Shown: one piece after another, positions 1,200 to 32,179 of the stretch
Layout: every line of letters starts with the position of its first letter
How positions within the stretch are numbered: position 1 is the stretch's first letter
Assembly: GCF_008728195.1 (NCBI RefSeq)
Contig: NZ_CP031600.1
Coordinates: forward strand, 61,286 to 125,285
Origin: Roseovarius indicus
Lineage (GTDB): Bacteria > Pseudomonadota > Alphaproteobacteria > Rhodobacterales > Rhodobacteraceae
Direction of reading: 5' to 3'
Length of the DNA: 64,000 nt
Position numbers and translations under genes: made by a program
The notes under the pieces: generated by a model
Seen by the model: the letters and a program-made list of their open reading frames with translations, nothing else
The model's database searches: none
What the model was told of the DNA's origin: nothing

Positions 1200-2558
1200 T
1201 CACCCGGGAAATACCCCCGCGAACAACCCCATCAGCGCCGTCACCAGCGCGGTCGCACACAGCACGACCAACAGCGGCGCGGCCATTTCCGCCCGGCCCA
1301 CTTCGCCATCGCGCGCCTGATACATGGGCACCACGATGCGCAGATAGACCGCCAGCGCCAGCACACTGTTGAGGATACCGATCACCGCCAGCCACAAATA
1401 GCCCGCCTCGATCGCGGCACCGAACAGCAGAACCTTGCCGACAAAGCCGAAGAGCGGAGGAATGCCGGTGAGCGACAGCAGGAACACGACCATCGCCACG
1501 CCGACCACCGGGCGGGCGCGACCGAAGCCCTTGAAATTGTCCAGATTGCGCCCCGCGATCATGATGACGGCAAAGGCCCCAAGGTTCATCGCCACATAGG
1601 CCGCGCCGAACACGATCACCGAAGGCAGGGCCAACGGGCTGGTGCCAAGCGCCACAATCCCCAGCATGAAATAGCCCGCCTGCGCCACCGAGGAGTAGGC
1701 AAGCAGCCGCACGACATTGCTCTGCACCAGGGCCGCCAGATAGCCGAATGTCATCGTCACCGCCGCGATCAGCGCGACGACGATGGGCCAGCCGGTAGCG
1801 ACAGGCAGATCGCGCAGCACCTGCGCAAAGGCAAAAACCGCCGCCACCTTGGTGATCACCGACAGAAAAGCCGCGACCGATACCGGCGCGCCATCATAGG
1901 CGTCGGGTGCCCAGAACTGGAATGGCACCAGCGCCGCCTTGTAGCCCAACCCGATCATCACCGCGACCAGCCCAGCCAGCGCGATCAGCGGCTTGCTTTG
2001 AAGCGCACCAAGCTCGGAAAAAAGCGTCGATCCGGCACCACCGAACCAGAAGGTCAGCCCGTAGATCATCACCGATCCGGTGACGGCGCCGAACACTAGA
2101 TATTTCATCGCCGCCTCGGTCGCCGCATCGTCGCGCGGCCAGGCCACCATTGCGAATGATCCCAGCCCGGTCAGCACCACGCCAAGGACCAGCAGCATCA
2201 TGTCGCCACCGCCCGCCAGCATCAGCGCCCCCAGGGTCACAAGGCAAAGCAGCGTGTAAATGCTGCCCTCGCGGTCCTGCCCGGCAATCTCGGCCCGTGT
2301 CATCAGCAGCGCTAGCGCGGTGCCCGGCAGCAGGATCAGCTTGGCCCAGCCCGAAAGCAGATCGACGCGGTAGGTGCCGCCAAAGACGCTTGTATCGGCC
2401 TCCAGCAGCGGCCACGTCAGCGCGGTGGACAGGCCCAGCCCGATCAACCCGAATGTCAGTGCCAGACGCGGCGCGCGCAGCATCTCGACCCCCAGCATCA
2501 GCACGACCGTCGAGGCCAGCATCAGTTCGGGAAACAGAAAGGACAGGTCGCGCGCCAT
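1200..2558 (-). CDS. nuoN: Complex I-like membrane subunit N
   Basis: The product is an antiporter-like proton-channel subunit of the complex I membrane arm (452 residues, about 14 predicted membrane segments). It carries the family signature YKAALVPFQFWAPDAYDGAP near residue 230 and the LLAYSSVAQAGY segment that follows a conserved channel helix. The start at 2558 overlaps the nuoM stop by ATGA, which argues for translational coupling; a longer frame upstream lies over nuoM and has no homology. It is the last gene of the nuoA-N-like operon. The normal length and key segments suggest a working subunit. Confidence 0.9.
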   Translation of the reverse strand: MARDLSFLFPELMLASTVVLMLGVEMLRAPRLALTFGLIGLGLSTALTWPLLEADTSVFGGTYRVDLLSGWAKLILLPGTALALLMTRAEIAGQDREGSIYTLLCLVTLGALMLAGGGDMMLLVLGVVLTGLGSFAMVAWPRDDAATEAAMKYLVFGAVTGSVMIYGLTFWFGGAGSTLFSELGALQSKPLIALAGLVAVMIGLGYKAALVPFQFWAPDAYDGAPVSVAAFLSVITKVAAVFAFAQVLRDLPVATGWPIVVALIAAVTMTFGYLAALVQSNVVRLLAYSSVAQAGYFMLGIVALGTSPLALPSVIVFGAAYVAMNLGAFAVIMIAGRNLDNFKGFGRARPVVGVAMVVFLLSLTGIPPLFGFVGKVLLFGAAIEAGYLWLAVIGILNSVLALAVYLRIVVPMYQARDGEVGRAEMAAPLLVVLCATALVTALMGLFAGVFPG

Positions 2559-4035: not shown

Positions 4036-5931
4036 TCAGGAGGACATCGGTAAGATCAGCAGCACCGCCGCGATGACGGCAATGCCCATGACGGTCAGGG
4101 CGAGTTCGCGGTGGATCAGCCCGCTTTGCAGCAAGCGCAGGCGGCGGCCGGCGGCGATTGTCCGGGCGACAAGGCCGAAGATCAGCCCGTCGATGCCATG
4201 GGTGTCGGTGTTTTCGGCACCGTCGCCAAGGCGCAGGTTCATCCGGCCCACCTGAAGGGTCGCGGCATAAAGGCGGTTGTCTGAACGCTCGGCACTGGAT
4301 GCGGTGCCAAGGCTCAAGATCCGCACAAGGCCAAGTTGCGCGGCCAGCAGACGCCGTTCGAAACCTTCACAGGCGGCGGCAAAGGCCAGCGCCGGGCGCA
4401 GCACCAGCCCGTCCATACCGCCCGCGACGGCAAAGCCGCGCTGCGCCATCGGCAGAACCGGCCCCATCAGGCGGGTCGGGGCGACGAACCAGCCCAGCAA
4501 CAGACCGCTCAGCGCCGCGACAAGCCCGAGGATCATCGCAGGCCCTTCCGGCGGCAGTTTGGCTTCCAGCAGATGTTCCAGCGGCGTGAAGGCGAACCCA
4601 AGCCCCGCCGCCAGCGCCGTCAGCACCGCCATGCCCGCGCCCATCCAGCCCATCCCCTTGCCCAGAACGGGCTGGGCCTCGCCCTGCCACAGCACCCGCA
4701 GCGCCCGCGCCATATAGGCGCCGGTCAGCACCGTGCCTGCCAGCGCCAGCGGCGCGAGCCATACGACCCCGGGGGCCGCCAGCGCGGCGGCAAGGATCGC
4801 GTCCTTGGAAAAGAAGCCGGCCAGCGGTGGAATACCCGCCAGCGCCACCGCGGCAACGGCGAAGGCGGAAAGGACCAGCGGTCGTGCCCGGCCCGCGCCC
4901 GCGACCGCATCCATGTCGGTGCTGTCGCGATCATGCTGGAACACACCCGCCCCCAGAAAAAGCGTGCTCTTGATCGCCGCGTGGGCGATAAGGTGCAGCA
5001 GCGCCGCCACCGGCACCCCCGCGCCAATGGCCAGCAGCATCAGCCCGTACTGGCTGGAGGTCGAGGCGGCCAGCAGCCGCTTCAGGTCCCGCTCGGCCAG
5101 CGCGATCAGCCCGGTGACGACGGCCGTCACGCCACCCACCAGCCCGACCGCAATCAGCGCGCCTGCGGGCAGCATCGGGGCCACGCGGATCAGCAGGATC
5201 GCCCCCGCCGCCACCAGCGTCGCGGAATGCAGCAAAGCGGAGACCGGCGTCGGGCCGGCCATGGCGCGCTGCAACCAGTCCTGCAACGGCACCTGCGCCG
5301 ACTTGCCCATCGCGCCCACCAGCAACAGCAACCCGGCGACAAGGGCGGGCGTGCCGCTGATCGCCAATGTAGCCGAGATTTCCGAGGTGCCGGCCCAGCC
5401 GATCAGCACGAAAATCCCCAGATAAAGGCCCAGATCGGCGCTGCGGGTATACAGAAACGCCCGTGTCGCGGCACTGGGCACGCCGTCACGCCCATGCCAG
5501 AAGCCGATCAGCAGATAGCTGGAAAAGCCGATCAATTCCCACGCCGCCAGCACGGTGATCCAGTCGCCCGCCAGCACCAGCGCCTGCATCGCCGCGACGA
5601 ACAGCAGCACGATGCCGAAAAAGCGCGGCCTTTCGGGGTCGCTGCGCATGTACCCGACGGCATAGACCAGCACACAGGCCGCCACCGTCGCCACCATAGC
5701 CGAAAACACCGCCGTCAGCGGCACCGCGACCAGCCGCAGGGGCTTCTGCGGCAGGCCCGGCAGGACCAGTTGCACCGCATCGCCCGCGACGGCCCCCGCA
5801 AGGGTGCCCATCGCCGCCAGAAACCCGATGCCGACGCCGACGAGCGCAATCGCTTCGGGTGCGCGCCGCAGCACGAGCTCCGCCAGGCCCGCCAGCAGCG
5901 GCGCAAGGATGATGAGCGCCAGCATCGTCAT
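4036..5931 (-). CDS. nuoL: Complex I-like membrane subunit L
   Basis: A 631-residue antiporter-like subunit, about the usual NuoL length. It has the WELIGFSSYLLIGFWHGR helix with the conserved Glu, the broken-helix Lys in MGKSAQVPLQDWL, the LLHSATLVAAGAILL segment, AERDLKRLLAASTSSQ and the second channel Lys in FFSKDAIL. The C-terminus carries extra hydrophobic segments as expected for the lateral helix of NuoL. The start overlaps the nuoK stop by four bases. A proton- or cation-translocating role is expected from the family. Confidence 0.92.
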   Translation of the reverse strand: MTMLALIILAPLLAGLAELVLRRAPEAIALVGVGIGFLAAMGTLAGAVAGDAVQLVLPGLPQKPLRLVAVPLTAVFSAMVATVAACVLVYAVGYMRSDPERPRFFGIVLLFVAAMQALVLAGDWITVLAAWELIGFSSYLLIGFWHGRDGVPSAATRAFLYTRSADLGLYLGIFVLIGWAGTSEISATLAISGTPALVAGLLLLVGAMGKSAQVPLQDWLQRAMAGPTPVSALLHSATLVAAGAILLIRVAPMLPAGALIAVGLVGGVTAVVTGLIALAERDLKRLLAASTSSQYGLMLLAIGAGVPVAALLHLIAHAAIKSTLFLGAGVFQHDRDSTDMDAVAGAGRARPLVLSAFAVAAVALAGIPPLAGFFSKDAILAAALAAPGVVWLAPLALAGTVLTGAYMARALRVLWQGEAQPVLGKGMGWMGAGMAVLTALAAGLGFAFTPLEHLLEAKLPPEGPAMILGLVAALSGLLLGWFVAPTRLMGPVLPMAQRGFAVAGGMDGLVLRPALAFAAACEGFERRLLAAQLGLVRILSLGTASSAERSDNRLYAATLQVGRMNLRLGDGAENTDTHGIDGLIFGLVARTIAAGRRLRLLQSGLIHRELALTVMGIAVIAAVLLILPMSS

Positions 5932-6239
5932 CCCTTCAACTCCCGCGCTTCTTCCATCTCGACCGATCCGCGCACCCGGAACCGCGCGATGGCGATGGCA
6001 AAGCCGACCGCCATTTCGACCGCCATCACCGCCATCACGATCAGCACGAACATCTGACCGGCCGGTTCATCGGGATGCAAATAGCGCCAGAAGGCCACCA
6101 GATTGACCAGTGCCGCGGCCAAAATCAGTTCGACCCCCATGATGATCATCACCAGATTGGTTTGACTCAGCGCGCCATAAAGTCCGATACCGAACAGCCC
6201 CGCGCCGACGCTGAGGGCGATTATGAGTTCCAGAATCAT
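5928..6239 (-). CDS. nuoK: Complex I-like membrane subunit K
   Basis: A 103-residue protein with three membrane helices, the usual size for NuoK. Both buried glutamates of the proton path are present, in GVELILAA (helix 2) and AVEMAVGFA (helix 3). The C-terminal tail after the third helix is polar. Four-base overlaps with nuoJ upstream and nuoL downstream indicate one polycistronic, translationally coupled unit. Confidence 0.92.
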   Translation of the reverse strand: MILELIIALSVGAGLFGIGLYGALSQTNLVMIIMGVELILAAALVNLVAFWRYLHPDEPAGQMFVLIVMAVMAVEMAVGFAIAIARFRVRGSVEMEEARELKG

Positions 6240-6751
6240 TTGCGCTGCTCCGCGTTGGGGACGATGGCCACCATCGTGGCCGCAACCATGGCGGTCAGAA
6301 TGGTCAGACCCGCCGACTGGAAGATCAACATCGACCGGCCCAGCAATTCGCGCCCCAAATCGGCGGCCTGTTCATGCGCGCCCGGCACGGACAGGGCGAC
6401 CGGACCCCAATCGGGCAGCCATACCAGCAGCAAGGCGGCCAGTAGCCCTATGCCCCCGGCCCAGAGCGACAAGCGTTTCTGGTGGGTCATGTCCATTTTG
6501 CCCATGCCGCCGGGATCCATCATGAACATCACCATGAAGATGGCCATCACGCTCATTTCCGTGGCCATCATCATGATCTGCAACACACCCAGAAACTCGG
6601 CCTGCATGACCAGAAACATCGCACCGATCGCGGTTTGCGAAAACAGCAGCGCCAGCGCCGAACGCACCATCGAATGGGTGCGAAAGACCACGACGCCGAA
6701 CCAAACCGCCGCCGCGCCGAAGAACGCCAGAAAGATCATCTGAACCGTCAT
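6236..6751 (-). CDS. nuoJ: Complex I-like membrane subunit J
   Basis: A 171-residue protein with five membrane segments, matching NuoJ. The segment MMATEMSVMAIFMVMFMMD corresponds to the third helix next to NuoK; it is unusually rich in methionine. The ATG at 6751 overlaps the nuoH stop by ATGA; a longer frame upstream lies over nuoH and was rejected. The Met-rich helix is unusual and may only be drift, but it stands out in a metal island. Confidence 0.88.
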   Translation of the reverse strand: MTVQMIFLAFFGAAAVWFGVVVFRTHSMVRSALALLFSQTAIGAMFLVMQAEFLGVLQIMMMATEMSVMAIFMVMFMMDPGGMGKMDMTHQKRLSLWAGGIGLLAALLLVWLPDWGPVALSVPGAHEQAADLGRELLGRSMLIFQSAGLTILTAMVAATMVAIVPNAEQRK

Positions 6752-7647
6752 ATCGGCACCACCAGCGCGATCACGCCCACGACAAAGATATTGGCCAGCG
6801 CCAGCGAGATCCCCAGCTTCCAACTCAGCGCCAGATAGCGCGCCTCGCGGATGCGCGGCATGTAGCGCCCGATGCTCAGCATGGCCGCAGCCACGGCCAG
6901 GATCTTGATCGCGCTCCAGGCCCAGGCGGGCAGCCACGGGCCCAGCCAGCCGCCCAGATAGAAGGTCACGGTCGCCCCCGCCAGCGCCAGGATAATGACC
7001 ATCCGCGCCAGCCGCAGCACCGCCAGCCGCACGCCGGTATATTCCGCCTCGACCCCGCCGGCCAATTCGCCGGTCGCATCGGGCAGGTCCAGCGGCGGCA
7101 ACCACGCGAGCCCCATCGCCGCCACGACGAACAGGACAAATCCGATGGGCTGGTAAAGCACGTTCCAAAGCTGCGCCTGCGACGTGACAATCTCTACCGT
7201 CGACAGCGATTCCGCGCGCATGGCGACGGCGGTGATCGGCATCACGATCAGCATCGCATAGGCGATGAACTGGCCCAGAAACCGCCAGCCCGCGATCATG
7301 GCGTAGGCCCCGTTCGGCCCCCAACCGGCCATGATCAGCGCCACCAGCACATAGGCCAGAGCAGCGTTCAGAAACAGCGCCCCGGTCGCCAGATCGGTGA
7401 TGATAAGCCCCGGCGCCAGCGGAATCACCGCCACCGCCAACAATCCCGCCACCAAAAGCAGCACCGGCCCAAGCTCAAAGAACAACCGGTCGGATTTGCG
7501 CGCCAGCAGCGATTCCCGGCCCAAGAGCGCCAGTGCGGCCCAGGCCGGACCGGTCAGGCTCATATGGCCGTGCACTGCCCATCGTTCGATGACGGCCAGC
7601 GCGTAGGCCCCCGCGAATAGCGACAAGAGAACGACAAGAATGGTCAT
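6748..7647 (-). CDS. nuoH: Complex I-like membrane subunit H
   Basis: A 299-residue membrane subunit with about eight helices. NuoH joins the quinone pocket to the proton channels. The LPPLDLPDATGEL... EAEYTGVRLA segment matches the conserved DLPEAESEL... EYSG loop, although acidic residues are fewer than in standard NuoH (ATGEL in place of AESEL). The N-terminal ERWAVHGHMSLTGP stands in for the ERR...QxRxGP motif and is divergent. This resembles the HyfC/EchB branch as much as NuoH. The start at 7647 overlaps the preceding fusion gene by ATGA. Confidence 0.85.
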   Translation of the reverse strand: MTILVVLLSLFAGAYALAVIERWAVHGHMSLTGPAWAALALLGRESLLARKSDRLFFELGPVLLLVAGLLAVAVIPLAPGLIITDLATGALFLNAALAYVLVALIMAGWGPNGAYAMIAGWRFLGQFIAYAMLIVMPITAVAMRAESLSTVEIVTSQAQLWNVLYQPIGFVLFVVAAMGLAWLPPLDLPDATGELAGGVEAEYTGVRLAVLRLARMVIILALAGATVTFYLGGWLGPWLPAWAWSAIKILAVAAAMLSIGRYMPRIREARYLALSWKLGISLALANIFVVGVIALVVPI

Positions 7648-9662
7648 CCGCGAATCTCCCACGGCGACAGGTCAAGCGAGACGACAGCGGTCAAGGCATC
7701 GCCCAGTTCCTGCTGCGCCGTCAGCGTTTCGACCAGGGCAAGGTTCACGGTGGAGGGTGTGTCGAGATCAGCCTGGACCACCTTGCCATCCACCAGCCTG
7801 ACGCGCAGCTGCGCCGCTCCGCGCGGTGTTTCGATGCGGGCCGCGCCCTCGCCCGAAACCGTTTTCACATCCCGCACCTGCGGCATTGCAATAATCCCGG
7901 CGGCCGCGATCAGGTCGAGGCTTTGTGCGATCTCGTCACAGCGCAGCCGAAACCGGGCCAGGGCATCGCCGCCTTCCTGTAGTCGCATCTCGAAACCGAG
8001 CGCTGCCAGCGTTGGATCGTCGATGCGGGCATCCGACCCGCCGCCCCGCGCCCGGTCCACCGGGCCGCTCGCCGGGGTGTCCTTGCCGATGGGCGCGATG
8101 CCACCCAGCCGCATCCGCATCAGCGGTGCCGCCTGCACCCGGCGGGTCAGCCGCCGGATCGCCCCGGCCTGCGCGGCGATCCCGTCGGCACCGGCGTCTT
8201 GGACCGCCAGTTGCAACGCCCCGGCCCGCGCGGCGAGCCACAGAAACCCCGACTGCAGGCCGAAATCGGCCAGCCAGTTCAGGTGGCTGGCGATCCGCTC
8301 GCGTTCCACGGCCGCCGCGCGACCACGTTGCGCGTCATCGGCGGGTTCGACACCAGCGGCATCCTCGATCGCTGCGCAGGCCAGCGTGCGATAGGCCACG
8401 GGGCTGAGCGGCATCATCGCGGCCAGACGGTCGACGAAATCGGTCACATTCATCTGCGGCCCATCCATAAGGTTCGTCGCGCCGACAAGGCTCGTGGCGT
8501 CGCTGGCTGCAACGGTATCGCCGTCCAGCGTTAGGGTCAGGCGCAGCCCAGCCGGAAGGCCGGAAAAGAACGGCCCGAACGGTACCTCGATCCAATCCAT
8601 CTGCAACCCGTCGGTGCTGCGCGGCTGGCCCTCCGTCATCTCGACCATCGACATGAAATGCGGCTCGATGCCGTCCATGCCGGCATCGGATTGGTCTCCA
8701 TGTTTGGTGTGACCATTGTGCCCAGCATGTTCCTCCGGTTTGCCATGGCCGCCGTGATCGCCATCACCTTCATGTCCGTGATGATCTTCACCAGATGCAT
8801 TATCGTGCATCTGCGCGGAACGGGCCACGTGATCCCCGTGCATATGCGCACCGTGCGCTTTGGTGCCGTGGCCGTGATCGCCATGTCCATGACCGTGACT
8901 TTCCACTTCATCCGCCTTCACCAAGAACATGCCGCATTTCGGGCACTTGCCCGGTGCGTCGCTCACGACTTCGGGATGCATCGGGCAGGTGTAGGACCCC
9001 GCATCGCCCGCGTCGTCGGCATGACCGGCATGTGCGCCATGCCCGGCCTGCGCATGACCGGCGGGCCTCGCCGTGTCGTCCCGGGGCATATCATGGTCGC
9101 CGTGCCCGACATGGCCGTCATGCCCGCTGCTCGACGCCGTTTCGCGCGGCACCAGCGTCATGCCGCATTTGGGACAGTCTCCGGGGGCGTCGCGGACAAT
9201 CTCGGGATGCATCGGGCAGGTGTATTCCACGCGCACCTCAAGAGCGGAGGCGGTGAATTCCTCGGTGTTCGCGCCAAAAGCGCCCGCCGCGACGACGCGG
9301 CGCAGATCGGCCAGCCCGGAGTGCAGCCCGGCCTGTGTCAGCGGAGCCGACATGTCCGCATCGGGCAACGGGGCGATGTCGCCGGCACCCAGCGCAAGGA
9401 TCGCGCGCGGGCGCGGGATCTGCGCGTAGGCGACGGCAGCGGCATCGCGCAGACCGGGGGGCAAGGGGCCAACGACGATCAACAGGTTCGCATGGCGCGG
9501 GGTACCCACGATCCGCAGGGGCGACCCGGCCAGATCAAGCCCCATCGACCGCGCGACAGACGCGCCGGGCAGCACAAAGGCTGTCAGATCGCGCGCCATG
9601 GCGGTGGAAATCAGCCTTCTCAGTCCTGTCATCGCACCCGCGTGCGCCCCGGCAATGGTCAT
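7644..9662 (-). CDS. NuoB-like / double heavy-metal-binding / NuoD-like fusion protein
   Basis: A 672-residue chimera. Residues ~10-128 resemble NuoB (SPLRIVGTPRHANLLIVVGPL... QIPRPRAILALG) but contain no cysteine, so all four ligands of cluster N2 are missing. Two heavy-metal-binding domains of the YHS-like CPMHP...CPKCGM type follow, with Cys149/163/166 and Cys226/240/243, each followed by a His-rich linker (~27 His in all, to residue ~335). Residues ~355-672 resemble NuoD or hydrogenase-4 large subunit (GPFFSGLPAGLRLTLTLDGD, ERERIASHLNWLADFG), with Phe at the place of the quinone-site GPQHPS His. The start at 9662 overlaps the nuoA stop by four bases. It would join the peripheral stub to the membrane arm. 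Metal binding follows from the family; redox activity as in complex I is unlikely. Confidence 0.85.
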   Translation of the reverse strand: MTIAGAHAGAMTGLRRLISTAMARDLTAFVLPGASVARSMGLDLAGSPLRIVGTPRHANLLIVVGPLPPGLRDAAAVAYAQIPRPRAILALGAGDIAPLPDADMSAPLTQAGLHSGLADLRRVVAAGAFGANTEEFTASALEVRVEYTCPMHPEIVRDAPGDCPKCGMTLVPRETASSSGHDGHVGHGDHDMPRDDTARPAGHAQAGHGAHAGHADDAGDAGSYTCPMHPEVVSDAPGKCPKCGMFLVKADEVESHGHGHGDHGHGTKAHGAHMHGDHVARSAQMHDNASGEDHHGHEGDGDHGGHGKPEEHAGHNGHTKHGDQSDAGMDGIEPHFMSMVEMTEGQPRSTDGLQMDWIEVPFGPFFSGLPAGLRLTLTLDGDTVAASDATSLVGATNLMDGPQMNVTDFVDRLAAMMPLSPVAYRTLACAAIEDAAGVEPADDAQRGRAAAVERERIASHLNWLADFGLQSGFLWLAARAGALQLAVQDAGADGIAAQAGAIRRLTRRVQAAPLMRMRLGGIAPIGKDTPASGPVDRARGGGSDARIDDPTLAALGFEMRLQEGGDALARFRLRCDEIAQSLDLIAAAGIIAMPQVRDVKTVSGEGAARIETPRGAAQLRVRLVDGKVVQADLDTPSTVNLALVETLTAQQELGDALTAVVSLDLSPWEIRG

Positions 9663-10021
9663 TGCCGCCTCAACGCGCCCTGGCTCCAGCCATAGAGCAG
9701 CCCGAGAAACAGGATGGCCAAAAACACCCCCATGTCGAGCAAAGCGATCAGCCCTTCTTCGCGATAGACGACCGCCCACGGATACATGAAGGCCATCTCC
9801 ATATCAAAGGCCAGAAACAGCAGAGCATAACCGGCATAACGCGCATGGTAGCGTACCCAGACCGGATCGCGCGACAGGGTGCCGGCGGTGGCGGGCACGT
9901 CCTTGCCAGGTTCCGAGCGGGCGCGCCCGATGGCACGGGCAAGCCCGAACAGGCTGAGCACGAAACCGAACACACCGACGCTCAGCCCGAAAAGGATCGC
10001 GTATTGGGAAAGCTCGCTCAT
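9659..10021 (-). CDS. nuoA: Complex I-like membrane subunit A
   Basis: A 120-residue protein with three membrane segments. The FDMEMAFMYPWA motif matches the family's FDxExxFLxPWA. The loop that normally contains the YECG cysteine is different here (TLSRDPVWVRYHARY). The ATG at 10021 has an AAAGGAG ribosome binding site nine bases upstream; a TTG three codons earlier is less likely. First gene of the eight-gene operon that runs to 1200. Confidence 0.88.
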   Translation of the reverse strand: MSELSQYAILFGLSVGVFGFVLSLFGLARAIGRARSEPGKDVPATAGTLSRDPVWVRYHARYAGYALLFLAFDMEMAFMYPWAVVYREEGLIALLDMGVFLAILFLGLLYGWSQGALRRQ

Positions 10022-10277
10022 CTGTAGCAACTCCTTTAGGCTGTCGCATCCCGATCAGGTTAAGGGTTTACTCAGCGCGGCACAATCAAGCCAATGCCAG
10101 GGCCCAAGCTGCCGTTATGCACAGACGCTTTGAGCTGCGGATCATTACAGTTCTCCGAAGAATCCGGGCTTGGGACTTCAAGAACACAGGTCACCAATTG
10201 GTTTCTTCCAATTGGGTGGCCGGTGATTTAGCGTTGCATAACTGACGATCCGAACAAACGGGACAGAGGGAAGTCAA
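10022..10277. promoter_or_regulatory. nuo promoter region with paired CCAATTGG palindromes
   Basis: The 256-base divergent interval separates nuoA (minus) from the DUF6629 gene (plus). Two copies of the self-complementary octamer CCAATTGG lie at 10194-10201 and 10208-10215, six bases apart. An outer TCACC...GGTGA pair surrounds them loosely. This could be an operator or a stem-loop. I found neither the TGTNNC-N4-TGTNNC box nor a MerR-type dyad here, so the nuo genes may not belong to the same regulon as the copper genes. Confidence 0.4.
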
Positions 10278-10964
10278 ATGTGCCTGTCCGCGCAAGTCAG
10301 CTTTGCCGCCAGTGTTTTTCTTGTTGGCGGCGGCACGGCCATTTCAATTGTGGCGTGGAGGCGCAACAAACGCTATCTCCCGCTTGCCCTGATGCCGCTT
10401 TTTGCCGGACTGCAGCAGTTTACCGAGGGTTTTGTCTGGGTCGGCATGAACGGAAGCGATCCCCTGACGGTTTTATGGGGGGCAATGGGGTTCATCTTTT
10501 TCACCTGGTTCATGTGGCCGATCTGGGTGCCATTCTCGGTCTACGTGCTGGAACCGGACGACAGCCCCCGCAAGCGGTTGTTTCGCCTCATGGCGTTGAT
10601 CGGACTGGCCTTCGGACTGTTGCTCTACATTCCGCACGGGCTGAACAGCAGCATGGTCGTGGTGGAGATCAACAATCAGTCACTGGCCTATGAAAAATCC
10701 ATGTGGCTGGATTTCATGATGCCGCGCTGGCTGACCAATACGATCTACGTGACCCTTATCACCCTGCCGCCAGCGCTGTCGCATTACAAACACATGCGCC
10801 ATTTCGCCCTGACGCTGGTGGCGGTGATCGTGGTCGATATCGCCTTCCTGCAGTTTGCATACATTTCGTTTTTCTGCCTGCTGGCGGGACTGGCGACACT
10901 ACATCTGGTCTACATTATCCTGACCAATAAATGCGCGCGTGAGTGCCCTGAACTCTTTGCCTGA
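10278..10964 (+). CDS. DUF6629-family membrane protein
   Basis: A 228-residue protein with seven or so membrane segments, beginning MCLSAQVSFAASVFLVGGG, which is the signature opening of DUF6629 proteins. LPLALMPLFAGLQQFTEGFVW is the second conserved block. Function is unknown; it sits in the inner membrane. A GACAGAGGGAAG stretch gives a ribosome binding site. It is divergent from the nuo operon and is followed by an IS256 scrap. Confidence 0.75.
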   Translation: MCLSAQVSFAASVFLVGGGTAISIVAWRRNKRYLPLALMPLFAGLQQFTEGFVWVGMNGSDPLTVLWGAMGFIFFTWFMWPIWVPFSVYVLEPDDSPRKRLFRLMALIGLAFGLLLYIPHGLNSSMVVVEINNQSLAYEKSMWLDFMMPRWLTNTIYVTLITLPPALSHYKHMRHFALTLVAVIVVDIAFLQFAYISFFCLLAGLATLHLVYIILTNKCARECPELFA

Positions 10965-14071: not shown

Positions 14072-14419
14072 TCAGACCGCTCGTCGCGGAGGTGGCGGGT
14101 CAAACTCTGGCGTGAAACGGTTCGCCACCAAGGAAAACGTCAGCGGCTTCACGTCAAAGCCACGTCGTGTCCGGGTGATATTTTTCTGTTGGGTGCCAAT
14201 TGCCATTAAAGAACAGGCCATGCCTGGATGACAGTCCTCTGATCGGTCGGTTTCGCCATATTCATGATGCGCCGAGGCGTTGGCTTCTGATGCAATCTGC
14301 ACGTGCTGGAAATCAGTAGTCCCAAGCGACATCTCTGTTCCGCCTGAAAGAACGACCGAGATCGCAAATATGGTGAGGCAAGCGATAAGGATTACGCCCG
14401 AGCGCCGCGTCAAGTTCAT
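14072..14419 (-). CDS. Small exported protein, paralogue of 15261
   Basis: A 115-residue protein with an N-terminal signal anchor (GVILIACLTIFAISVVL), an HHEYGETDRSEDCHPGMACS centre and a Pro-rich end (FTPEFDPPPPRR). The same plan (signal, Cys-Pro-Gly-Met...Cys, Pro-rich tail) is seen in the protein at 15261. No family is recognised. It overlaps the cytochrome c stop by one base, so it is co-translated with it. A periplasmic copper-related role is guessed from context only. Confidence 0.65.
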   Translation of the reverse strand: MNLTRRSGVILIACLTIFAISVVLSGGTEMSLGTTDFQHVQIASEANASAHHEYGETDRSEDCHPGMACSLMAIGTQQKNITRTRRGFDVKPLTFSLVANRFTPEFDPPPPRRAV

Positions 14420-14877
14420 CAGAAAACCCCATTTTCCTTCTGAAGCGCGCGCACATAGGCGGTGATCGCTTTCACGTCGGCGTCTGTCGCGCCGTCCACC
14501 GGCGGCATGTTTCCGAAGCGCCAGTGATGTGATCGGACGCCATTCTTCGCAGCCATCACGAAGGCCATATCCGAGTGATGGTTGGGTTCGTAAATCTTGT
14601 GCACCAGAGGCGGTCCCTTCCCTTCACGACCCGCTGCATTGGCCCCGTGGCAGACTGCGCATTTCGCGTTAAAGGCGCGCTCTCCTATTTGCGCGAGGGA
14701 CGCCAAGTTGTCCGGCAGTTTCACCTCGACGATGGGCGCACCTTCAGCAATACCCGACATGTCGGGCGGCGTCATGGAATGCCCGGTCTGACTTGGTGCA
14801 GGACGCATGACCTGCCATAGAAGCGCACCGCTCCCGACGACCAGAACTCCGGCGATGATCCAACCAAGTTTGCTCAT
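14419..14877 (-). CDS. Membrane-anchored c-type cytochrome
   Basis: A 152-residue monohaem cytochrome c with an uncleaved-looking N-terminal anchor, haem motif CAVCH near residue 74 and a likely axial Met in FGNMPPVDG. It is closely related to the cytochrome at 45367: both share PPLVHKIYEPNHHSDMAF and AKNGVR.HHW. It may deliver or accept electrons for the copper oxidases. It overlaps the genes on either side. Confidence 0.9.
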   Translation of the reverse strand: MSKLGWIIAGVLVVGSGALLWQVMRPAPSQTGHSMTPPDMSGIAEGAPIVEVKLPDNLASLAQIGERAFNAKCAVCHGANAAGREGKGPPLVHKIYEPNHHSDMAFVMAAKNGVRSHHWRFGNMPPVDGATDADVKAITAYVRALQKENGVF

Positions 14878-23774: not shown

Positions 23775-25097
23775 ATGAAATCTGAATACAAGGCGAACAG
23801 CATCACGCTGGCTGGCGCTATCGCGATGGGCACGGGCGTGATGATTGGGGCTGGCATCTTCGCGCTGACCGGCCAGATCGCTCAGCTTGCTGGGCCACTT
23901 TTCCCACTCTCGTTCATCGCTGGCGCGATCGTTACCGCGTTCAGCGCTTATACCTATGTCAAGATGTCGAATGCCTATCCTTCGGTTGGGGGCATCGCGA
24001 TGATCCTGCAAAAGGCATATGGCCCGACGACCATTGCCGCAGGCGCTGCGTTGCTCATGGCGCTGTCGATGGTCATCAATGAAAGCCTCGTTGCGCGGAC
24101 CTTCGCCACATACCTTTTGGAGGGATTAGGCGTCGAGCAGACCAAATGGTTGGTTCCTACCCTTGGTGTGGGCCTGATTGTGTTTGCCTATCTCATCAAC
24201 GCTGCCGGCAACCGATCGGTGGGGTTGTTCTCGATCGTCATGGCTATCCTGAAGGTTGGAGGCATTGCGCTTTTCGGGGCAGCGGGGCTCTGGGCAGGCG
24301 GTATCTCGTTCGAGGCGGCGACGGACGGGCAATCGGCCCAAATAACCGGCTTTGTGGCCTCCGTTGCGCTCTCGATCCTAGCCTTCAAGGGCTTCACGAC
24401 CATCACCAATAGCGGTGCCGAAGTGACCAACCCGAACCGCAATGTCGGCCGGGCCATCGTTGCATCCATCGGCATCTGCGTTATCGTTTATCTTCTGGTC
24501 GCCTTCGCCGTCGGCTCCAGCCTTAGCCTTGAAGAGATCATCGCCGCAAAAGACTATGCCCTTGCTGAGGCCGCAGGGCCAACCTTGGGCCGAACGGGGT
24601 TTTACTTGACCGTTCTTCTCGCCATCGTCGCGACGTCCTCAGGACTAATCGCAAGCATTTTTGCGGTCTCCCGAATGCTTGCCATGCTGACCGACATGAA
24701 ACTGATCCCCCACAGCCACTTTGGTATGCCGGGTGCGATCCGAGACCATACTTTGGTCTACACCGTGGTAATCGCCAGTTTCCTAGCGGTATTCTTCGAC
24801 CTCAGCCGGATCGCCTCACTTGGTGCGTTCTTCTATCTGGTGATGGACATCGTCATCCATTGGGGCGTGTTCCGGCACCTGCGACAGGAAATCGGCGCCG
24901 TGGGGGCCGTTCTGCTTAGCGCGATCGCGCTCGACATCGTCGTGCTGGCGGCGTTCACCGCGCTGAAGTGGAAGAGTGATCCATTGATCGTGCTGGTCTC
25001 CATCGGGATGATGGTCGCTGTCTTTGCCTTCGTGGGGCTGTTTTTGCGCCATCGTCCACCACAAGAGGCTCAATCCGAATCTCACTCGCAAATGTAG
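23775..25097 (+). CDS. APC-superfamily amino acid permease
   Basis: A 440-residue transporter with about 12 helices. [23 protein letters not shown] is the APC helix 1 signature, and [29 protein letters not shown] contains the helix 6 to loop region. The substrate is not evident. It starts within one base of the preceding stop and precedes lgt by 11 bases, so the three are probably one operon. Confidence 0.85.
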
Positions 25098-27046: not shown

Positions 27047-27550
27047 TCAATCGTGAGGCACTCCCAGCATTTCGGCGTCCGCATGGTCCATCAGCAACTG
27101 TATGAGTTCGGGTATATCCGCTGCAGAGAGCTTGGTCTGCTCTTCGGGGTCGTGGACAAACGCAATAATATCGGCCAATTCCTGACCTGATAGATTGATC
27201 ACATCGCCCAGTTCATAGCGCTGCATCATCACCATGCTTTCAGCGCCGCGCCACATGCGCGCGGCAAAGTCGAAGGGGTTCATAGGCTGGTCCATGAATC
27301 TGGCGTCCAGCGGCGGTGCATTTTTGCCCCCAACACCGTTCACCGAGTGGCAAACAACACATGCTTTCGAAACGAATAAAAGGCGGCCGTTGGTAGGATC
27401 CATAGGGGGAAAGATCAGTCCGGAGGCCATTTTCGTGTCTGGCATTATAGCTGTATGAGACGTGGCCTTGGCCCGCGTATGCGCGGAAGCGATTGCAATG
27501 GCAATTGCGACTGCGCCGAACGCCCCAATACGAAACCGATGTACCTTCAC
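27047..27550 (-). CDS. c-type cytochrome
   Basis: A 167-residue exported monohaem cytochrome c: signal peptide (AIAIAIASAHTRAKA), haem motif CVVCH in SKACVVCHSVNGVGG, and several candidate axial Met residues (MWRGAESMVMMQRYELGD). It overlaps arcC by four bases, so it is translated with the arginine deiminase genes, an unusual partner for them. Confidence 0.88.
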   Translation of the reverse strand: MKVHRFRIGAFGAVAIAIAIASAHTRAKATSHTAIMPDTKMASGLIFPPMDPTNGRLLFVSKACVVCHSVNGVGGKNAPPLDARFMDQPMNPFDFAARMWRGAESMVMMQRYELGDVINLSGQELADIIAFVHDPEEQTKLSAADIPELIQLLMDHADAEMLGVPHD

Positions 27551-28464
27551 CTGTTTCTACCACCGACCCTACTCGAAACTTGTGTTCCTGCGGCCCCCTC
27601 TATGATCTGTGCCGCGTCCTTTAATCTTCCGATACCTGCTAATCCACCGGAAGCAGCAAATGTTGCAGCCGCCGCTAGTTTTGGGGCCATTGACCCTGCG
27701 GGTGCATCGAATTGCAGGGCGTCCTGCGGCCGTAGCCACTTTACCTTCGTGGCTATGTCCGTTCCAAAATCCCTGTAGACGGCATCGACATCTGTCAGCA
27801 GTAGAAAGACGTCTGCCCCCAGCGACTTGGCGAGCACAGCGCTTGACGCGTCCTTATCGACGACCGCCTCGATCCCGGTCAGACTACCATCATCCTGCCG
27901 GATCACCGGAATCCCGCCGCCGCCGGTGCAGATAACCACCACTTCCGCATCGAGCAGCAACCGGATGACGCCGGTATCGGGAATTTCTTGCGGAGCGGGC
28001 GAGGCGACGACGCGTCGCCACTTAGCGCCGTCTTGCGACATCGTCCATCCATTTGCATCGGCAATGGTCTGTGCCTGCTGGCGATCATAAACCGGCCCCA
28101 CGAACTTTGTCGGTTCGCCGAACGCCGGATCGTTGCGGTCTACCACGACCTGGGTCAGCAATGTGGCGACCGGTCGGTCGTGGTCCAGGACATTCTCAAG
28201 CTCCTGTTCGATCATGTAGCCGATCATTCCGGCTGTCTCCGCACCCAGAACATCCAGCGGATAACCATCGTCAGTAGGGTTTTGAAGCGCTAGCAGCCCG
28301 ACTTGTGGACCATTGCCGTGTGTGATGACCAATTGGTGCCCCGCGTGCAGTATGTCGGCGAGGGCCCGCGCCGCGACCTGCGCGTTGTCTCGCTGGTTAC
28401 TTGCGGTCATGGGCTGTCCGCGTTTCAGAAGGGCATTACCCCCGAGGGCTGCGACGACCAGCAT
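27547..28464 (-). CDS. arcC: Carbamate kinase
   Basis: A 305-residue enzyme that makes ATP from carbamoyl phosphate and ADP, the last step of the arginine deiminase pathway. Typical motifs: AALGGNALLKRG, ITHGNGPQVGLL, VVVICTGGGGIPV, VDKDASSAVLA and GSMAPKLAAA. It starts four bases after the arcB stop. Confidence 0.93.
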   Translation of the reverse strand: MLVVAALGGNALLKRGQPMTASNQRDNAQVAARALADILHAGHQLVITHGNGPQVGLLALQNPTDDGYPLDVLGAETAGMIGYMIEQELENVLDHDRPVATLLTQVVVDRNDPAFGEPTKFVGPVYDRQQAQTIADANGWTMSQDGAKWRRVVASPAPQEIPDTGVIRLLLDAEVVVICTGGGGIPVIRQDDGSLTGIEAVVDKDASSAVLAKSLGADVFLLLTDVDAVYRDFGTDIATKVKWLRPQDALQFDAPAGSMAPKLAAAATFAASGGLAGIGRLKDAAQIIEGAAGTQVSSRVGGRNR

Positions 28465-28467
28465 GGC

Positions 28468-29469
28468 TCAGTTCCCCAATGTGGCGACGAGGACGGCCTT
28501 GATGGTGTGCAATCGGTTTTCCGCCTGATCGAAAACAATGGAGGCCGGACCTTCAAACACCTCCTCCGTCACTTCCATCGCCGTAATGTCGAAATGCCTG
28601 GCAATCTCGGCGCCGACCTCGGTCTCGTCACTGTGGAACGCCGGCAGGCAATGCATGAATTTGGTGTGCGGATTGCCGGTTTGCGCCATTACCTGCTTTG
28701 TCACCTGGTAAGGTTTGAGCAGTTCTATCCGCTCAGCCCATTTTTCTTTTGGCTCGCCCATCGAGACCCAAACATCAGTGTAAATGAAGTCGACACCCTG
28801 CGTTGCGTCGTCTACCGCGTCGGTCAGCATCAGCCGAGCACCGGTTTGATCAGCAATTTCTGAGGCTTCGCCGCGAATTTCTTCCGTTGGCCAGAGGTTT
28901 TCCGGGGCACACAAACGCACGTCCATGCCCATCTTGGCCCCACCGATCAGCAGGCTGTCACCCATGTTGTTCCCAGCGTCGCCCAGAAAGGCAAAGGCGA
29001 TTTGCTTGAGCGGCTTGTCCGAGTGCTCCTGCATGGTCAGGAAATCCGCGAGGATCTGGGTCGGGTGAAACTCGTCCGTCAGGCCGTTGTAGACCGGCAC
29101 GCCCGCATATTGCGCAAGCGTCTCGACAATGGGCTGTCCGAAACCACGATATTCGATTGCGTCATAGACCCGCCCCAGGACGCGGGCGGTATCCTTGACG
29201 GTCTCTTTCTTGCCCAGATGCGATCCCGACGGCCCGAGATAGGTGACATGCGCGCCCTGATCGTGGGCCGCCACTTCGAAGCCCACGCGCGTGCGGGTGC
29301 TGTCCTTCTCGAAGATCAGCGCGATTTCCTTGCCGGTCAGGCGCGGCACCTCGTAGCCGCTGTACTTGGCGGCCTTAAGATCGGCCGAGAGTTTCAGTAG
29401 AAAGGCGATCTCCTCCGAGCTGAAATCGCGCAGCGTCAGGAAATGGCGGTTTCTCAGATTGTAGGACAT
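28468..29469 (-). CDS. arcB: Ornithine carbamoyltransferase (catabolic)
   Basis: A 333-residue enzyme that splits citrulline with phosphate to ornithine and carbamoyl phosphate. The carbamoyl-phosphate site [11 protein letters not shown], the YRGFGQ segment, and the HCLPAFH motif are intact. The start at 29469 follows GGAAAGGAAATCCC; a longer frame lies over arcA. The arc gene order supports a catabolic role. Confidence 0.93.
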
Positions 29470-29483
29470 GGGATTTCCTTTCC

Positions 29484-30713
29484 TCAGAGGGGGTCCCGGA
29501 TGGTGGGGCAGCTCATGCAGTGGCTGCCGCCACGCCCCCGGCCGAGCTCGGCCCCGGGAATGGCCAGCACTTCGATGCCGGCCTTCTCGAGCGCAGCATT
29601 GGTGTCGTCGTTGCGGTCGTAGCCGATCACAACGCCCGGCGAGAGCGCCAGCACGTTGTTGCCGTCGTTCCACTGCTCGCGCGACTGCTCGGCTGCGTCC
29701 GCGCCGCCCGTGGGGACCAGGCGGAGTTCCTTGAAACCCAGAACCTCGGCCGTGATCTCGAACAGGTGCCGGGCATCCCGCCGGATATCGAGCGGCGCCT
29801 TTCCTTCGCCGGGGCGCAGGTCATAGCAGGTGATCGCGTCGGCCACTTCCTTGAACGTGGTCACGACATCCCCCCCGCAATGGGTAAAAACGGTATCCAG
29901 ATGCATCGCCGCGCGCGACCGCGGCATCTGACAGGCGATGACGCGCTGCACGTCGCCGCTGGCGAATAATGCCTCGGCAAGCTGTCCGACAGCCTGGGGC
30001 GTCGAGCGTTCGCCCATACCGACCATGACCACGCCGTGCCCGATTGGCATGATGTCCCCGCCCTCTAGCGTGGCCGCACCGAAATCCCGCGTCGGATCGC
30101 CGAACCAGACCCGCGCCTTGCCCGCAAAGGTCGGATGAAACCGGTAGACTGCCGCCATTAGTAGCGTCTCGGGTCGGCGCGCCGCGAAATGCATCGGGTT
30201 TAGCGACACACCACCATAGACCCAGGCGGAATTGTCGCGAGTGAAAATGAAATTCGGCAGTGGCGGGAGCACAAAACCGTGCTGTCCTAGATAGCTACCG
30301 AACATGCCTGAAGGGGTGAAGGGCAGATCATCTACCGTGAACCCGCCAACGAGGTAGCGAGCAAGATCTTCTCCGGGCAATTCTTCCATCCAGGCGCGCA
30401 AATCGTCGCGCATACCTACGCCAACATCGTTACGGGTGATGCGATGGTCCAGAACCCAAGCACGCGCGTCTGCAATATCCAGCGTTTCGGCGAGCAGGTT
30501 CATCGCGTCTAAGACTTCGACCCCCCCCTCGCGCATGATCGCCGAGAAGACATCGTGATCGCGGATCGCCTGCTTGACCCAGAAGACATCGTCGAACAGC
30601 AGTTCCTCGCGATTGTCCGGGGTCAGGCGCCGATGGGCGAGGCCGGGTGGCGAGACGATAACCTGCCGCAGCTTGCCGGTTTCGGAATGAACGCCAAGAG
30701 CATGATCGATCAT
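29484..30713 (-). CDS. arcA: Arginine deiminase
   Basis: A 409-residue enzyme that converts arginine to citrulline and ammonia. Motifs include [19 protein letters not shown] at the start, [28 protein letters not shown], and the catalytic Cys in [11 protein letters not shown] near the end. The ATG at 30713 follows GAAGGAGACC. It lies 17 bases after the arcD-like gene. Confidence 0.95.
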
Positions 30714-30730
30714 GGAAGGTCTCCTTCGAT

Positions 30731-32179
30731 CTAGAGGGTCGCGGCAACGCTGAGCGCGGCCATGATGAAAATCGCGAGGATCAGCAGGAGCGGCCAAACA
30801 AAAACCACCCAGCGGTCGAAGGACACGCGGCCGATCGCCAGACCGCCAATTACGACCGCCGAGGTCGGCGTGATAAGATTCACGAGGCCGCTCGCCGATT
30901 GATAGGCTGTCACCACAAGATCACGGCTGACACTGGCAAAATCCCCCAAAGGGGCCAGGATCGGCATCGACAGGACCGCGAGCCCCGAAGACGACGGCAC
31001 CAGAAAGCTCATCCCGATCTCGATCCAGAGCATCAGATTGATGAAGGCAATCTCGGATAGGCCACCCAACGTGTCTGCGGCGCTGTTGAGGATAGTGTCG
31101 GCGATTAAGCCCTGTTCCATGATCACTACGATTCCGCGTGCCAAGCCGATCACCAGCGCCACGCCAAGCAGGTCTTTCGCCCCGTCGACAAAAGCAGAGG
31201 TCAGTTTCTTCTCCCCCATCCGCGCGACCAGGCCTACGACGATGGCCATGCCGAAGAAGAGCGCCCCCATCCGTGCCATCCACCAACCCTGGCTCGACAC
31301 GCCCCAGATCATCACCGCGAAGGTGGCGAAGAAAAGGACCAGCACCAGCTTCTGAGTTCCTGTCAGCTTCGGTTCGGTGAATTCAGCATCGTCAGCGCCC
31401 AGAAATATCCGACGATGTGCATCGTGCTGCTTGGCGACCACCGAGCGGGACGGATCGGCCTTCACCTTTGAGGCGTAGCGCATCACGTAGGCGATGCATG
31501 TCAGAAGCCCGCCGATCAGGATGACCAGCCGCAACGCCATGCCCTGGGTAAAGGGTATCCCCGCCGCGTTAGATGCGATTACGGTTGCAAACGGGTTGAT
31601 CGTGGAGCCGAGGGTGCCGATGCCCGCCCCGATCAGGATGATCGCGACGCCGGTAACGGCGTCAAATCCCGCGGCTATGACTACCGGGATCAGCAGCGCA
31701 TAAAAAGCCAGTGTTTCCTCGGCCATACCATAGGTCGTGCCGCCCAAGGCGAACAGTGACATCAGGATCGGGATCATCCAGATCTCGCGCCCCTTCATGC
31801 GCCCCATGGCTGTTTGGATACCAGTATCGATGGCTTTGGTGGCGTTCACCACACCCAGAAACCCGCCGAGCAGGAGCACAAACAACGCAACGTCGATCGC
31901 ATTGGCCGCATAGCTGTCCGGATCGTAGAACCCGGCGACGGGCGCAAGCATCACATCGACGAAACCCTGCGGATTGGGCTCGACCGTCTGATAGGTGCCC
32001 GGCACCGCGATCTCGCGTCCGACCTCTTCGTTCATCGCGCGATCATATTGCCCCGCAGGAATGATCCATGTGAGCGTCGCGACAATGACGATCAGACCGA
32101 ACAGGATTGTGTAAGCCGTCGGAAACCATGACGCCATACCATCAGTGTGTGCTTCCCTATCGGTTGGATTGTCGGACAT
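30731..32179 (-). CDS. YfcC-family (ArcD-like) basic amino acid carrier
   Basis: A 482-residue membrane carrier with 12 or so helices ([55 protein letters not shown]). YfcC proteins often replace ArcD in arginine deiminase operons, so arginine/ornithine exchange is the likely job. It starts just 18 bases after the ICMT-like gene, so the arc genes look joined to the metal operon above. Confidence 0.85.

What the first reader, a model, noticed from the sequence alone, without database searches (positions are those of the whole stretch)
7644..9662. NuoB-like / double heavy-metal-binding domain / NuoD-like fusion inside a complex I-like operon
The sequence shows one frame in which a NuoB-like region, two CPMHP...CPKCGM metal-binding domains with His-rich linkers (~27 His), and a NuoD-like region are joined. 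In known complex I, NuoB and NuoD form the quinone site and carry cluster N2; metal-binding domains of this type belong to P1B ATPases such as the one at 33130 in this same island. I infer a metal-sensing or metal-driven version of the proton-pumping module. I know of no described system with this plan.
Basis: partly seen in the sequence, partly recalled or inferred. Interest (0 to 1): 0.92.

Follow-up and report, generated by a model that had tools for sequence, protein, structure and literature searches.

The report
Metal-binding complex I without redox centres
A bacterium carries, probably on a plasmid, a conserved, stripped-down relative of respiratory complex I in which the electron-handling parts are lost, copper-type metal-binding domains sit in their place and the membrane channel is rich in methionine, so it may use the proton gradient to move or respond to copper rather than to respire.

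Summary
One 672-codon frame (7644-9662, minus strand) joins a NuoB-fold domain, two HMBD metal domains with His-rich linkers, and a NuoD-fold domain. It is no frame error: 70 of 80 genome loci show B and D in one frame; nine of the other ten are cut by contig ends. It belongs to an operon nuoA-[B-HMBD-D]-H-J-K-L-M-N, complete in 59 of 80 loci from Alpha-, Beta-, Gammaproteobacteria and Rubrobacter.

Proton-handling residues of L, M, N, K, A are kept.

New here: the NuoJ gate helix is near-invariant across phyla (QIMMM[AG][TS]EM..MA..MVM.MMDPGG), its constant Tyr replaced by Met. NuoJ and NuoK have twice the Met of canonical complex I; H, L, M, N have less. Copper-type markers lie near 34 of 54 longer loci (12 by a P1B-ATPase only) and 0 of 20 canonical nuo loci; the control is partly circular.

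Best reading: a redox-dead, proton-coupled soft-metal (probably Cu+) transporter derived from complex I. Metal, transport and direction are inferred. Nine literature searches found no description.

The parts
9659..10030 (-). nuoA-like (123 aa in this frame; likely start Met4); keeps Asp76/Glu78, gains Met77/79/82
   Evidence: PF00507 E=2e-23; residues
7644..9662 (-). B-HMBD-D fusion, 672 aa
9249..9662 (-). NuoB-fold domain, residues 1-138, no Cys (no N2 ligands)
9147..9224 (-). HMBD copy 1 (CPMHP...CPKCGM, residues 147-172)
   Evidence: PF19335; motif positions
8997..9134 (-). His-rich linker 1 (residues 177-222)
   Evidence: pLDDT below 50 for residues 178-220
8916..8993 (-). HMBD copy 2 (residues 224-249)
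   Evidence: PF19335
8658..8915 (-). His-rich linker 2 (residues 250-335)
   Evidence: pLDDT below 50 for residues 253-344
7644..8657 (-). NuoD-fold domain (residues 336-672) beginning with invariant FMSM; quinone-site His/Tyr/Asp replaced
   Evidence: PF00346
6748..7662 (-). nuoH-like; 22 of 31 canonical constant charges lost, unaligned or kept in under 90% of rows; Met137/141/148 gained
   Evidence: PF00146 E=1e-50
6236..6751 (-). nuoJ-like, Met-rich
   Evidence: PF00499 E=9e-20
6488..6574 (-). Met-rich NuoJ segment (residues 60-88): MMMATEMSVMAIFMVMFMMDPGGMGKMDM
5928..6239 (-). nuoK-like; keeps Glu37/Glu75, gains Met31/69/72/76
   Evidence: PF00420 E=2e-20
4036..5931 (-). nuoL-like; keeps Glu132, Lys210, Lys376
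   Evidence: PF00361/PF00662
2558..4018 (-). nuoM-like; keeps Glu137, Lys217, Lys248, Glu398
   Evidence: PF00361; TIGR01972 above cut-off
1200..2558 (-). nuoN-like; keeps Lys207, Lys237, Lys375
   Evidence: PF00361

Best explanation
It is a redox-dead member of the complex I lineage that couples proton movement through NuoL/M/N to movement of a soft metal ion, most likely Cu+. Proposed working: (1) HMBDs and His-rich tails on the cytoplasmic B-D arm collect cytoplasmic Cu+ (inferred from the family and from NuoB/NuoD lying on the cytoplasmic side in complex I). (2) The former quinone cavity, now without N2 and without quinone ligands, hands the ion to the former E-channel (inferred). (3) The E-channel subunits NuoJ, NuoK, NuoA and NuoH have gained Met next to kept Glu/Asp, giving thioether sites typical of Cu(I)/Ag(I) conduits (the Met are shown; that they line the channel and bind metal is inferred). 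(4) Metal binding replaces quinone reduction as the event that moves the NuoJ gate, and protons running inward through the three antiporter-like subunits power export of Cu+ against its steep gradient (inferred). Shown: architecture, loss of N2 and quinone ligands, retention of proton residues, near-invariant Met-rich NuoJ helix, co-occurrence of that helix with the HMBD fusion in the genomes sampled, and frequent copper-type neighbours.
For: Fusion and 8-gene operon conserved over two phyla. N2 Cys and quinone ligands are lost and no redox subunit is in the operon. Proton residues kept at 97-100%. Met content on aligned columns against 20 canonical genomes: NuoJ 11.1 vs 5.2%, NuoK 9.4 vs 4.3%, NuoA 4.6 vs 3.7%, but H 3.5 vs 4.6, L 2.8 vs 4.9, M 3.9 vs 6.2, N 3.5 vs 6.2, so a general Met bias is excluded. 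The NuoJ helix is near-identical from Rubrobacter to Rhodobacterales, and its Tyr that is constant in canonical NuoJ is Met in all 78 rows. Exact motif QIMMMATEM: 13 of 394 family genomes, all among the 15 fusion carriers, none among 379 non-carriers; 3 of 398 phylum genomes, all among the 5 carriers. Copper-type markers in 34 of 54 loci of 17 kb or more (22 by multicopper oxidase, CopB, cupredoxin or CusA; 12 by a P1B-ATPase only) vs 0 of 20 canonical nuo loci. Matches to the multicopper-oxidase model at E<=1e-3 in 15 of 15 carrier genomes vs 28 of 45 non-carriers, Fisher p=0.006. TM3 of NuoJ is the gate of the E-channel in complex I (passages of PMC10212512 and PMC13324432).
Against: No experiment. 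Copper identity is indirect: 20 of 54 longer loci have no marker within reach, 12 have only a P1B-ATPase, which need not be a copper pump; the marker HMMs were built from these neighbours and the control loci are mostly filled by the long nuo operon. Genome-wide, CopB is not significantly enriched in carriers (2 of 15 vs 2 of 45, p=0.26), and multicopper oxidases above the TIGR01480 cut-off are likewise in 2 of 15 vs 2 of 45; only the lax E<=1e-3 count differs. Immediate neighbours are mixed: P-type ATPases, the commonest class, are 4 of 94 scanned. No Cu-regulator operator was found upstream. The Met of NuoJ TM3 are not confined to one helix face (p=0.70 for all nine; p=0.053 for a sub-range chosen after looking). 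Transport versus sensing, direction and stoichiometry cannot be read from sequence. The Met p-values ignore shared ancestry. Confidence was lowered from 0.47 to 0.45 when the P1B-only and above-cut-off counts were added.
Confidence: 0.45

Rival explanations
1. Metal-gated proton valve or pump regulator: metal binding to the HMBDs opens or closes proton flow through L/M/N, but no metal crosses the membrane. It would lower or adjust the proton-motive force or local pH under metal stress.
For: HMBD number varies from 1 to 11 while the rest is conserved, as expected of a sensor or sponge; the proton residues are intact.
Against: Does not by itself explain the near-invariant Met-rich TM3 of NuoJ and the Met gains next to the channel carboxylates of NuoK and NuoA.
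Confidence: 0.23
2. Metal-redox pump: oxidation of Cu+ to Cu2+ at the B-HMBD-D arm or at the Met sites releases energy that drives outward proton pumping, with an unknown electron acceptor.
For: Copper oxidases, a cupredoxin and a c-type cytochrome gene (14419-14877, best NCBIfam match below cut-off) lie nearby in the window and in some other loci (cytochrome c in 4 of 89, cupredoxin in 7 of 89).
Against: No conserved electron carrier is part of the operon; the oxidases are expected on the other side of the membrane (recalled); N2 and quinone ligands are gone.
Confidence: 0.12
3. Same coupled transporter, but for another metal (Ag+, Zn2+, Hg2+) or a Cu+ importer rather than exporter.
For: HMBDs occur in several metal systems (recalled); a CDF transporter gene is also in the window; 12 of 54 loci show only a P1B-ATPase of unproved metal.
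Against: Met-rich membrane sites favour Cu+/Ag+ (recalled chemistry); 22 of 54 loci carry multicopper oxidase, CopB, cupredoxin or CusA; no mercury or arsenic family is among the 25 commonest of 87 families found in 94 neighbour genes.
Confidence: 0.13
4. It borrows NuoC, E, F, G and I from the chromosomal complex I and forms a hybrid NADH dehydrogenase.
For: A canonical nuo region lies on another contig of the same genome.
Against: N2 ligands and quinone residues are lost, so electrons would have no acceptor; B and D are fused through long linkers; identity to that contig's subunits is only 23-41%.
Confidence: 0.03
5. Decayed complex I, without function.
For: Some copies are broken: Xanthobacter remnant; L022, L064, L071 lack genes away from contig ends; frames are interrupted in L027, L025 and L008.
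Against: Strong conservation of the whole operon and of proton residues over two phyla.
Confidence: 0.02

Closest known systems
Respiratory complex I (NDH-1), NuoA, B, D, H, J, K, L, M, N
   Same: Fold of B and D parts, all seven membrane subunits, the proton-handling Lys/Glu/Asp.
   Different: No NuoC, E, F, G, I in the operon; no N2 Cys set; no quinone His/Tyr/Asp; constant NuoJ TM3 Tyr replaced by Met; HMBD inserted.
Membrane-bound hydrogenase / energy-converting hydrogenase group (P. furiosus MbhL/MbhJ, 6cfw; E. coli HycE)
   Same: Best sequence profile match of the whole alignment is MbhL (E=5.7e-21, to the D part); MbhJ matches the B part; PFGPxxPGL is shared with MbhL.
   Different: D part has only two Cys (429, 575), not the paired CxxC [NiFe] ligands (ligand rule recalled); the membrane arm here is NuoA-N type with three antiporter-like subunits.
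Mrp cation/proton antiporters
   Same: Non-redox use of the same antiporter-like subunits (recalled; PMC7419157 seen as search listing and abstract start only).
   Different: Mrp lacks NuoB/NuoD-type peripheral subunits and metal domains (recalled); here NuoA, H, J, K are the complex I forms.
Copper P1B-ATPases and CusB with HMBD (PF19335), e.g. the ATPase at 33130 in this window
   Same: Same HMBD family (PDB chain 8ovl_A, named copper-translocating P-type ATPase, E=2e-9).
   Different: Energy source would be the proton gradient rather than ATP; no P-type ATPase domain was found in the fusion.

Membership tests
Respiratory complex I (NDH-1) | Cys of NuoB that hold cluster N2 | tested here: not met
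   Of the 5 Cys columns of the genome's own NuoB, four have no Cys in 73 B parts and one has Cys in 26 of 73; no row has more than one; window B part has none
Respiratory complex I (NDH-1) | NuoD quinone-site residues (HPxxHG His, Tyr of the DY pair, loop Asp; identity of these residues recalled) | tested here: not met
   The two His align with Phe and Pro, the Tyr with Pro, the loop Asp with Gln (residue 140 of the D part)
Respiratory complex I (NDH-1) | NuoC, E, F, G, I with the complex | tested here: not met
   Not in the operon in the window nor annotated within 12 kb in L006, L007, L008, L010. No genome-wide search for these five was made; they appear, by eye on ORF starts, only in the separate nuo region
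Respiratory complex I (NDH-1) | Membrane arm A, H, J, K, L, M, N | tested here: met
Respiratory complex I (NDH-1) | Conserved proton residues of L, M, N, K, A | tested here: met
Respiratory complex I (NDH-1) | Constant Tyr of NuoJ TM3 (taken to be the pi-bulge Tyr) | tested here: not met
   Met in all 78 rows
Energy-converting [NiFe] hydrogenase | Two CxxC pairs in the large subunit (recalled) | tested here: not met
   Only Cys429 and Cys575 in the D part
HMBD (PF19335) proteins | Pfam score above the curated cut-off | tested here: met
   104.8 bits vs 23.6
HMBD (PF19335) proteins | Actual metal binding | not testable with these tools
   Needs protein
Proton-coupled Cu+ exporters | Cu+ transport coupled to protons | not testable with these tools
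   Needs vesicle assay

The most novel reading that the evidence does not exclude
Evolution turned complex I into a non-redox, proton-driven copper(I) pump: N2 and the quinone site were deleted, copper-collecting domains were spliced between NuoB and NuoD, and the E-channel that normally carries the quinone signal to the proton subunits was re-lined with methionines to pass or sense Cu+. It spreads on plasmids and by horizontal transfer as a self-contained 8-gene cassette, and offers a complex I in which coupling of the E-channel to NuoL/M/N can be studied without any redox chemistry.
Probability: 0.42. Interest if true: 0.95.

Novelty: new variant of a known kind. Interest (0 to 1): 0.85.

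Why it matters
[quoted passage not shown] Here is a natural complex I relative that keeps the proton residues but has lost N2 and the quinone ligands and has a changed gate. If a metal ion is its driver or cargo, it separates the coupling device from the redox reaction, which would make that question directly testable. It would also add a new energy source (the proton gradient through a complex I-type arm) to the known ways in which bacteria expel copper, and give a function to hundreds of proteins (787 matched the D-part profile; not each was checked) now called 'heavy metal-binding domain-containing protein', 'Ni,Fe-hydrogenase III large subunit' or 'NADH-quinone oxidoreductase subunit'.

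Tried and rejected
Frame error or assembly artefact: rejected; B and D hits in one frame in 70 of 80 loci (in one of these, L027, the frame breaks later, inside D). A few database entries of 334-344 aa with only PF00346 looked like HMBD-less relatives. One, P0132, has the strain name and contig length of L021, where the open frame holds B, two HMBDs and D; another, P0186 (369 aa), begins with letters like those right after a CPKCG motif. The others were not traced, so a separate HMBD-less form is not excluded. One metagenome protein (P0216, 561 aa) has B, a His-rich linker and D but no HMBD motif.

L043 and L076 looked HMBD-less by a strict regex; reading them shows one HMBD each. The 82 ORFs count the window twice (as L001 and WIN), hence 80 of 81 distinct; four loci that its filter missed (L027, L048, L050, L073) show 1-5 HMBDs. 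L029, the one without a motif, is cut at a contig start.

Helical-face test of NuoJ Met: not significant as a whole. Scan for CueR- and CopR-like boxes: 1 and 2 of 76 upstream regions. CopB enrichment genome-wide: not significant. PADLOC: no match. The neighbour Pfam scan covered 94 of 142 genes picked, all from loci up to L052. Script: it counts an acid aligned to a gap as 'kept' (one case in H, two in J, two in L, one each in M and N), so I give H as 9 kept of 31. Literature: nine searches answered; nothing describing this system among the listings; the library lacks most subscription papers. HMBD in PMC9433437 turned out to mean the HMA-type domain. PMC8879329 (passages) does not mention metals. 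L042 in the NuoM tree is a locus cut before nuoM, so its row is no true NuoM and was ignored. Rows dropped before counts: loci L001-L005, L009, L011 in neighbourhood counts; L001, L011, L084 in residue counts. In the first Met control L, M, N had too few canonical rows; it was redone with 20 genomes.
Full report

THE OPERON. On the same strand lie nuoA (10030-9659), the fusion, nuoH, J, K, L, M, N (to 1200), most overlapping by a few bases. NuoC, E, F, G and I are not among them. The genome has a separate nuo region on contig C1, whose A, B, D, H, J, K, L, M, N are 23-41% identical to these and which by eye also holds C, E, F, G and I. The window lies on contig C3; ParA/ParB-like genes at 61595-63762 suggest a plasmid (read by eye).

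DISTRIBUTION. A scan of one genome per species gave 115 relatives, of which 80 loci were kept: Rhodobacterales, Hyphomicrobiales, Caulobacterales, Halomonas, Marinobacter, Alcanivorax, Neopusillimonas and Rubrobacter (Actinomycetota). 59 of 80 have all parts A, B, D, H, J, K, L, M, N; the rest are cut by contig ends except L022, L064 and L071, which look rearranged or decayed. Plasmid records with it include Sulfitobacter, Paracoccus, Nitratireductor and Rubrobacter. It is in 5 of 398 Pseudomonadota genomes and 15 of 394 genomes of the host's family, the host counted in both. In a NuoM tree the HMBD-type forms one clade against canonical NuoM (98/98), apart from the mis-assigned L042 row, and identical NuoM proteins occur in Mesorhizobium, Aliihoeflea and Brevundimonas, which indicates recent horizontal transfer.

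WHAT IS LOST. Of the five Cys columns of the genome's own NuoB, four have no Cys in any of 73 B parts, and the fifth has Cys in 26; no B part has more than one. In the D part the quinone motif GPQHPAAHG reads GPFFPGLPxG, so its two His become Phe and Pro; the Tyr of the DY pair aligns with Pro and the loop Asp with Gln. Of 31 charges constant in NuoH of 20 canonical genomes, 22 are lost, unaligned or kept in under 90% of rows (with the correction given under Tried and rejected).

WHAT IS KEPT. L Glu132, Lys210, Lys376; M Glu137, Lys217, Lys248, Glu398; N Lys207, Lys237, Lys375; K Glu37, Glu75; A Asp76, Glu78, at 97-100%. By established knowledge of complex I these are the proton-handling residues (recalled).

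WHAT IS GAINED. HMBDs number 1 to 11; 80 of 81 distinct fusion ORFs have at least one. NuoJ TM3, which in complex I is the pi-bulge gate of the E-channel (PMC10212512 and PMC13324432, passages seen), reads EFLGVLQIMMM[AG][TS]EM[SA][IV]MA[IF]FMVM[FY]MMDPGG in the variants printed, from Rubrobacter to Rhodobacterales; the Tyr constant in canonical NuoJ, taken to be the pi-bulge Tyr, is Met62. On aligned columns NuoJ has 11.1% Met against 5.2% in 20 canonical genomes of the family and NuoK 9.4 against 4.3%, NuoA 4.6 against 3.7%, while H, L, M and N have less Met than canonical, so a general Met bias is excluded. The motif QIMMMATEM occurs in 13 of 394 genomes, all fusion carriers; G333, one of two carriers missed, has QIMMMASEM; the other, G648, was not read. 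These facts together point to Cu(I)/Ag(I) chemistry in or at the former E-channel. Against a simple stripe: the nine Met of TM3 are not clustered on one helix face (p=0.70).

CONTEXT. The window holds a CopA-type multicopper oxidase (TIGR01480 above cut-off), a CopI-like cupredoxin (below cut-off), a CopB and a Cu-type P1B-ATPase with HMBDs. Of 54 loci of at least 17 kb (47 genome loci, the rest plasmid records, the window and further stretches), 34 have at least one marker: 22 a multicopper oxidase, CopB, cupredoxin or CusA, and 12 only a P1B-ATPase; 0 of 20 canonical nuo loci do. The marker models were built from these neighbours. In Rubrobacter tropicus a P1B-ATPase, a metal-sensitive regulator and a copper-binding protein directly precede nuoA. 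Against this, CopB is not significantly commoner in carriers genome-wide (2 of 15 vs 2 of 45), nor are multicopper oxidases above the model's cut-off (2 of 15 vs 2 of 45); only the lax count differs (15 of 15 vs 28 of 45, p=0.006); and 20 of 54 loci have no marker.

READING. A complex I relative with no known electron path, an intact set of proton residues, metal-collecting domains in the arm and a Met-rich gate is best read as a proton-coupled soft-metal machine. Export of Cu+ fits the cytoplasmic side of the HMBDs and the resistance islands, and three antiporter-like subunits would multiply the driving force, but direction and transport itself are inference. A metal-gated proton valve is the main rival. 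Membership: it is homologous to complex I but fails its redox-defining features, so it should not be filed as an NADH dehydrogenase, as present annotation of its subunits does.

Noticed in passing
window 27547-32179 (minus): Arginine deiminase set, read by eye: carbamate kinase, ornithine carbamoyltransferase, arginine deiminase and a YfcC-type transporter next to the Cu P1B-ATPase; argF, arginine deiminase, YfcC and a P-type ATPase are grouped alike in Sulfitobacter dubius (L008).
   Followed up: no
window 10278-10964 (+): DUF6629-type membrane protein divergent from nuoA; its BLAST cluster occurs in 12 of 85 loci, so it may belong to the island.
   Followed up: partly
window 23775-25097 (+): Amino-acid permease that by eye resembles a permease cluster found near the operon in 17 of 85 loci, mostly gammaproteobacterial.
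   Followed up: no
L008 10995-13437; L064 9055-11008: B part and HMBD-D part lie in separate frames; either a natural split or a frameshift.
   Followed up: partly
L009 (Xanthobacter autotrophicus Py2 pXAUT01): Only nuoA and a 110-aa B-like remnant are left, near a gene annotated as bilirubin oxidase: a decayed copy.
   Followed up: no
L084 956-5780: A second L/M/N set (30-36% identical) lies upstream of an HMBD-type operon in a Halomonas MAG.
   Followed up: no
G000:C4:39322-39810 (L094): A further gene of the NuoB/hydrogenase small-subunit family PF01058 elsewhere in the genome.
   Followed up: no
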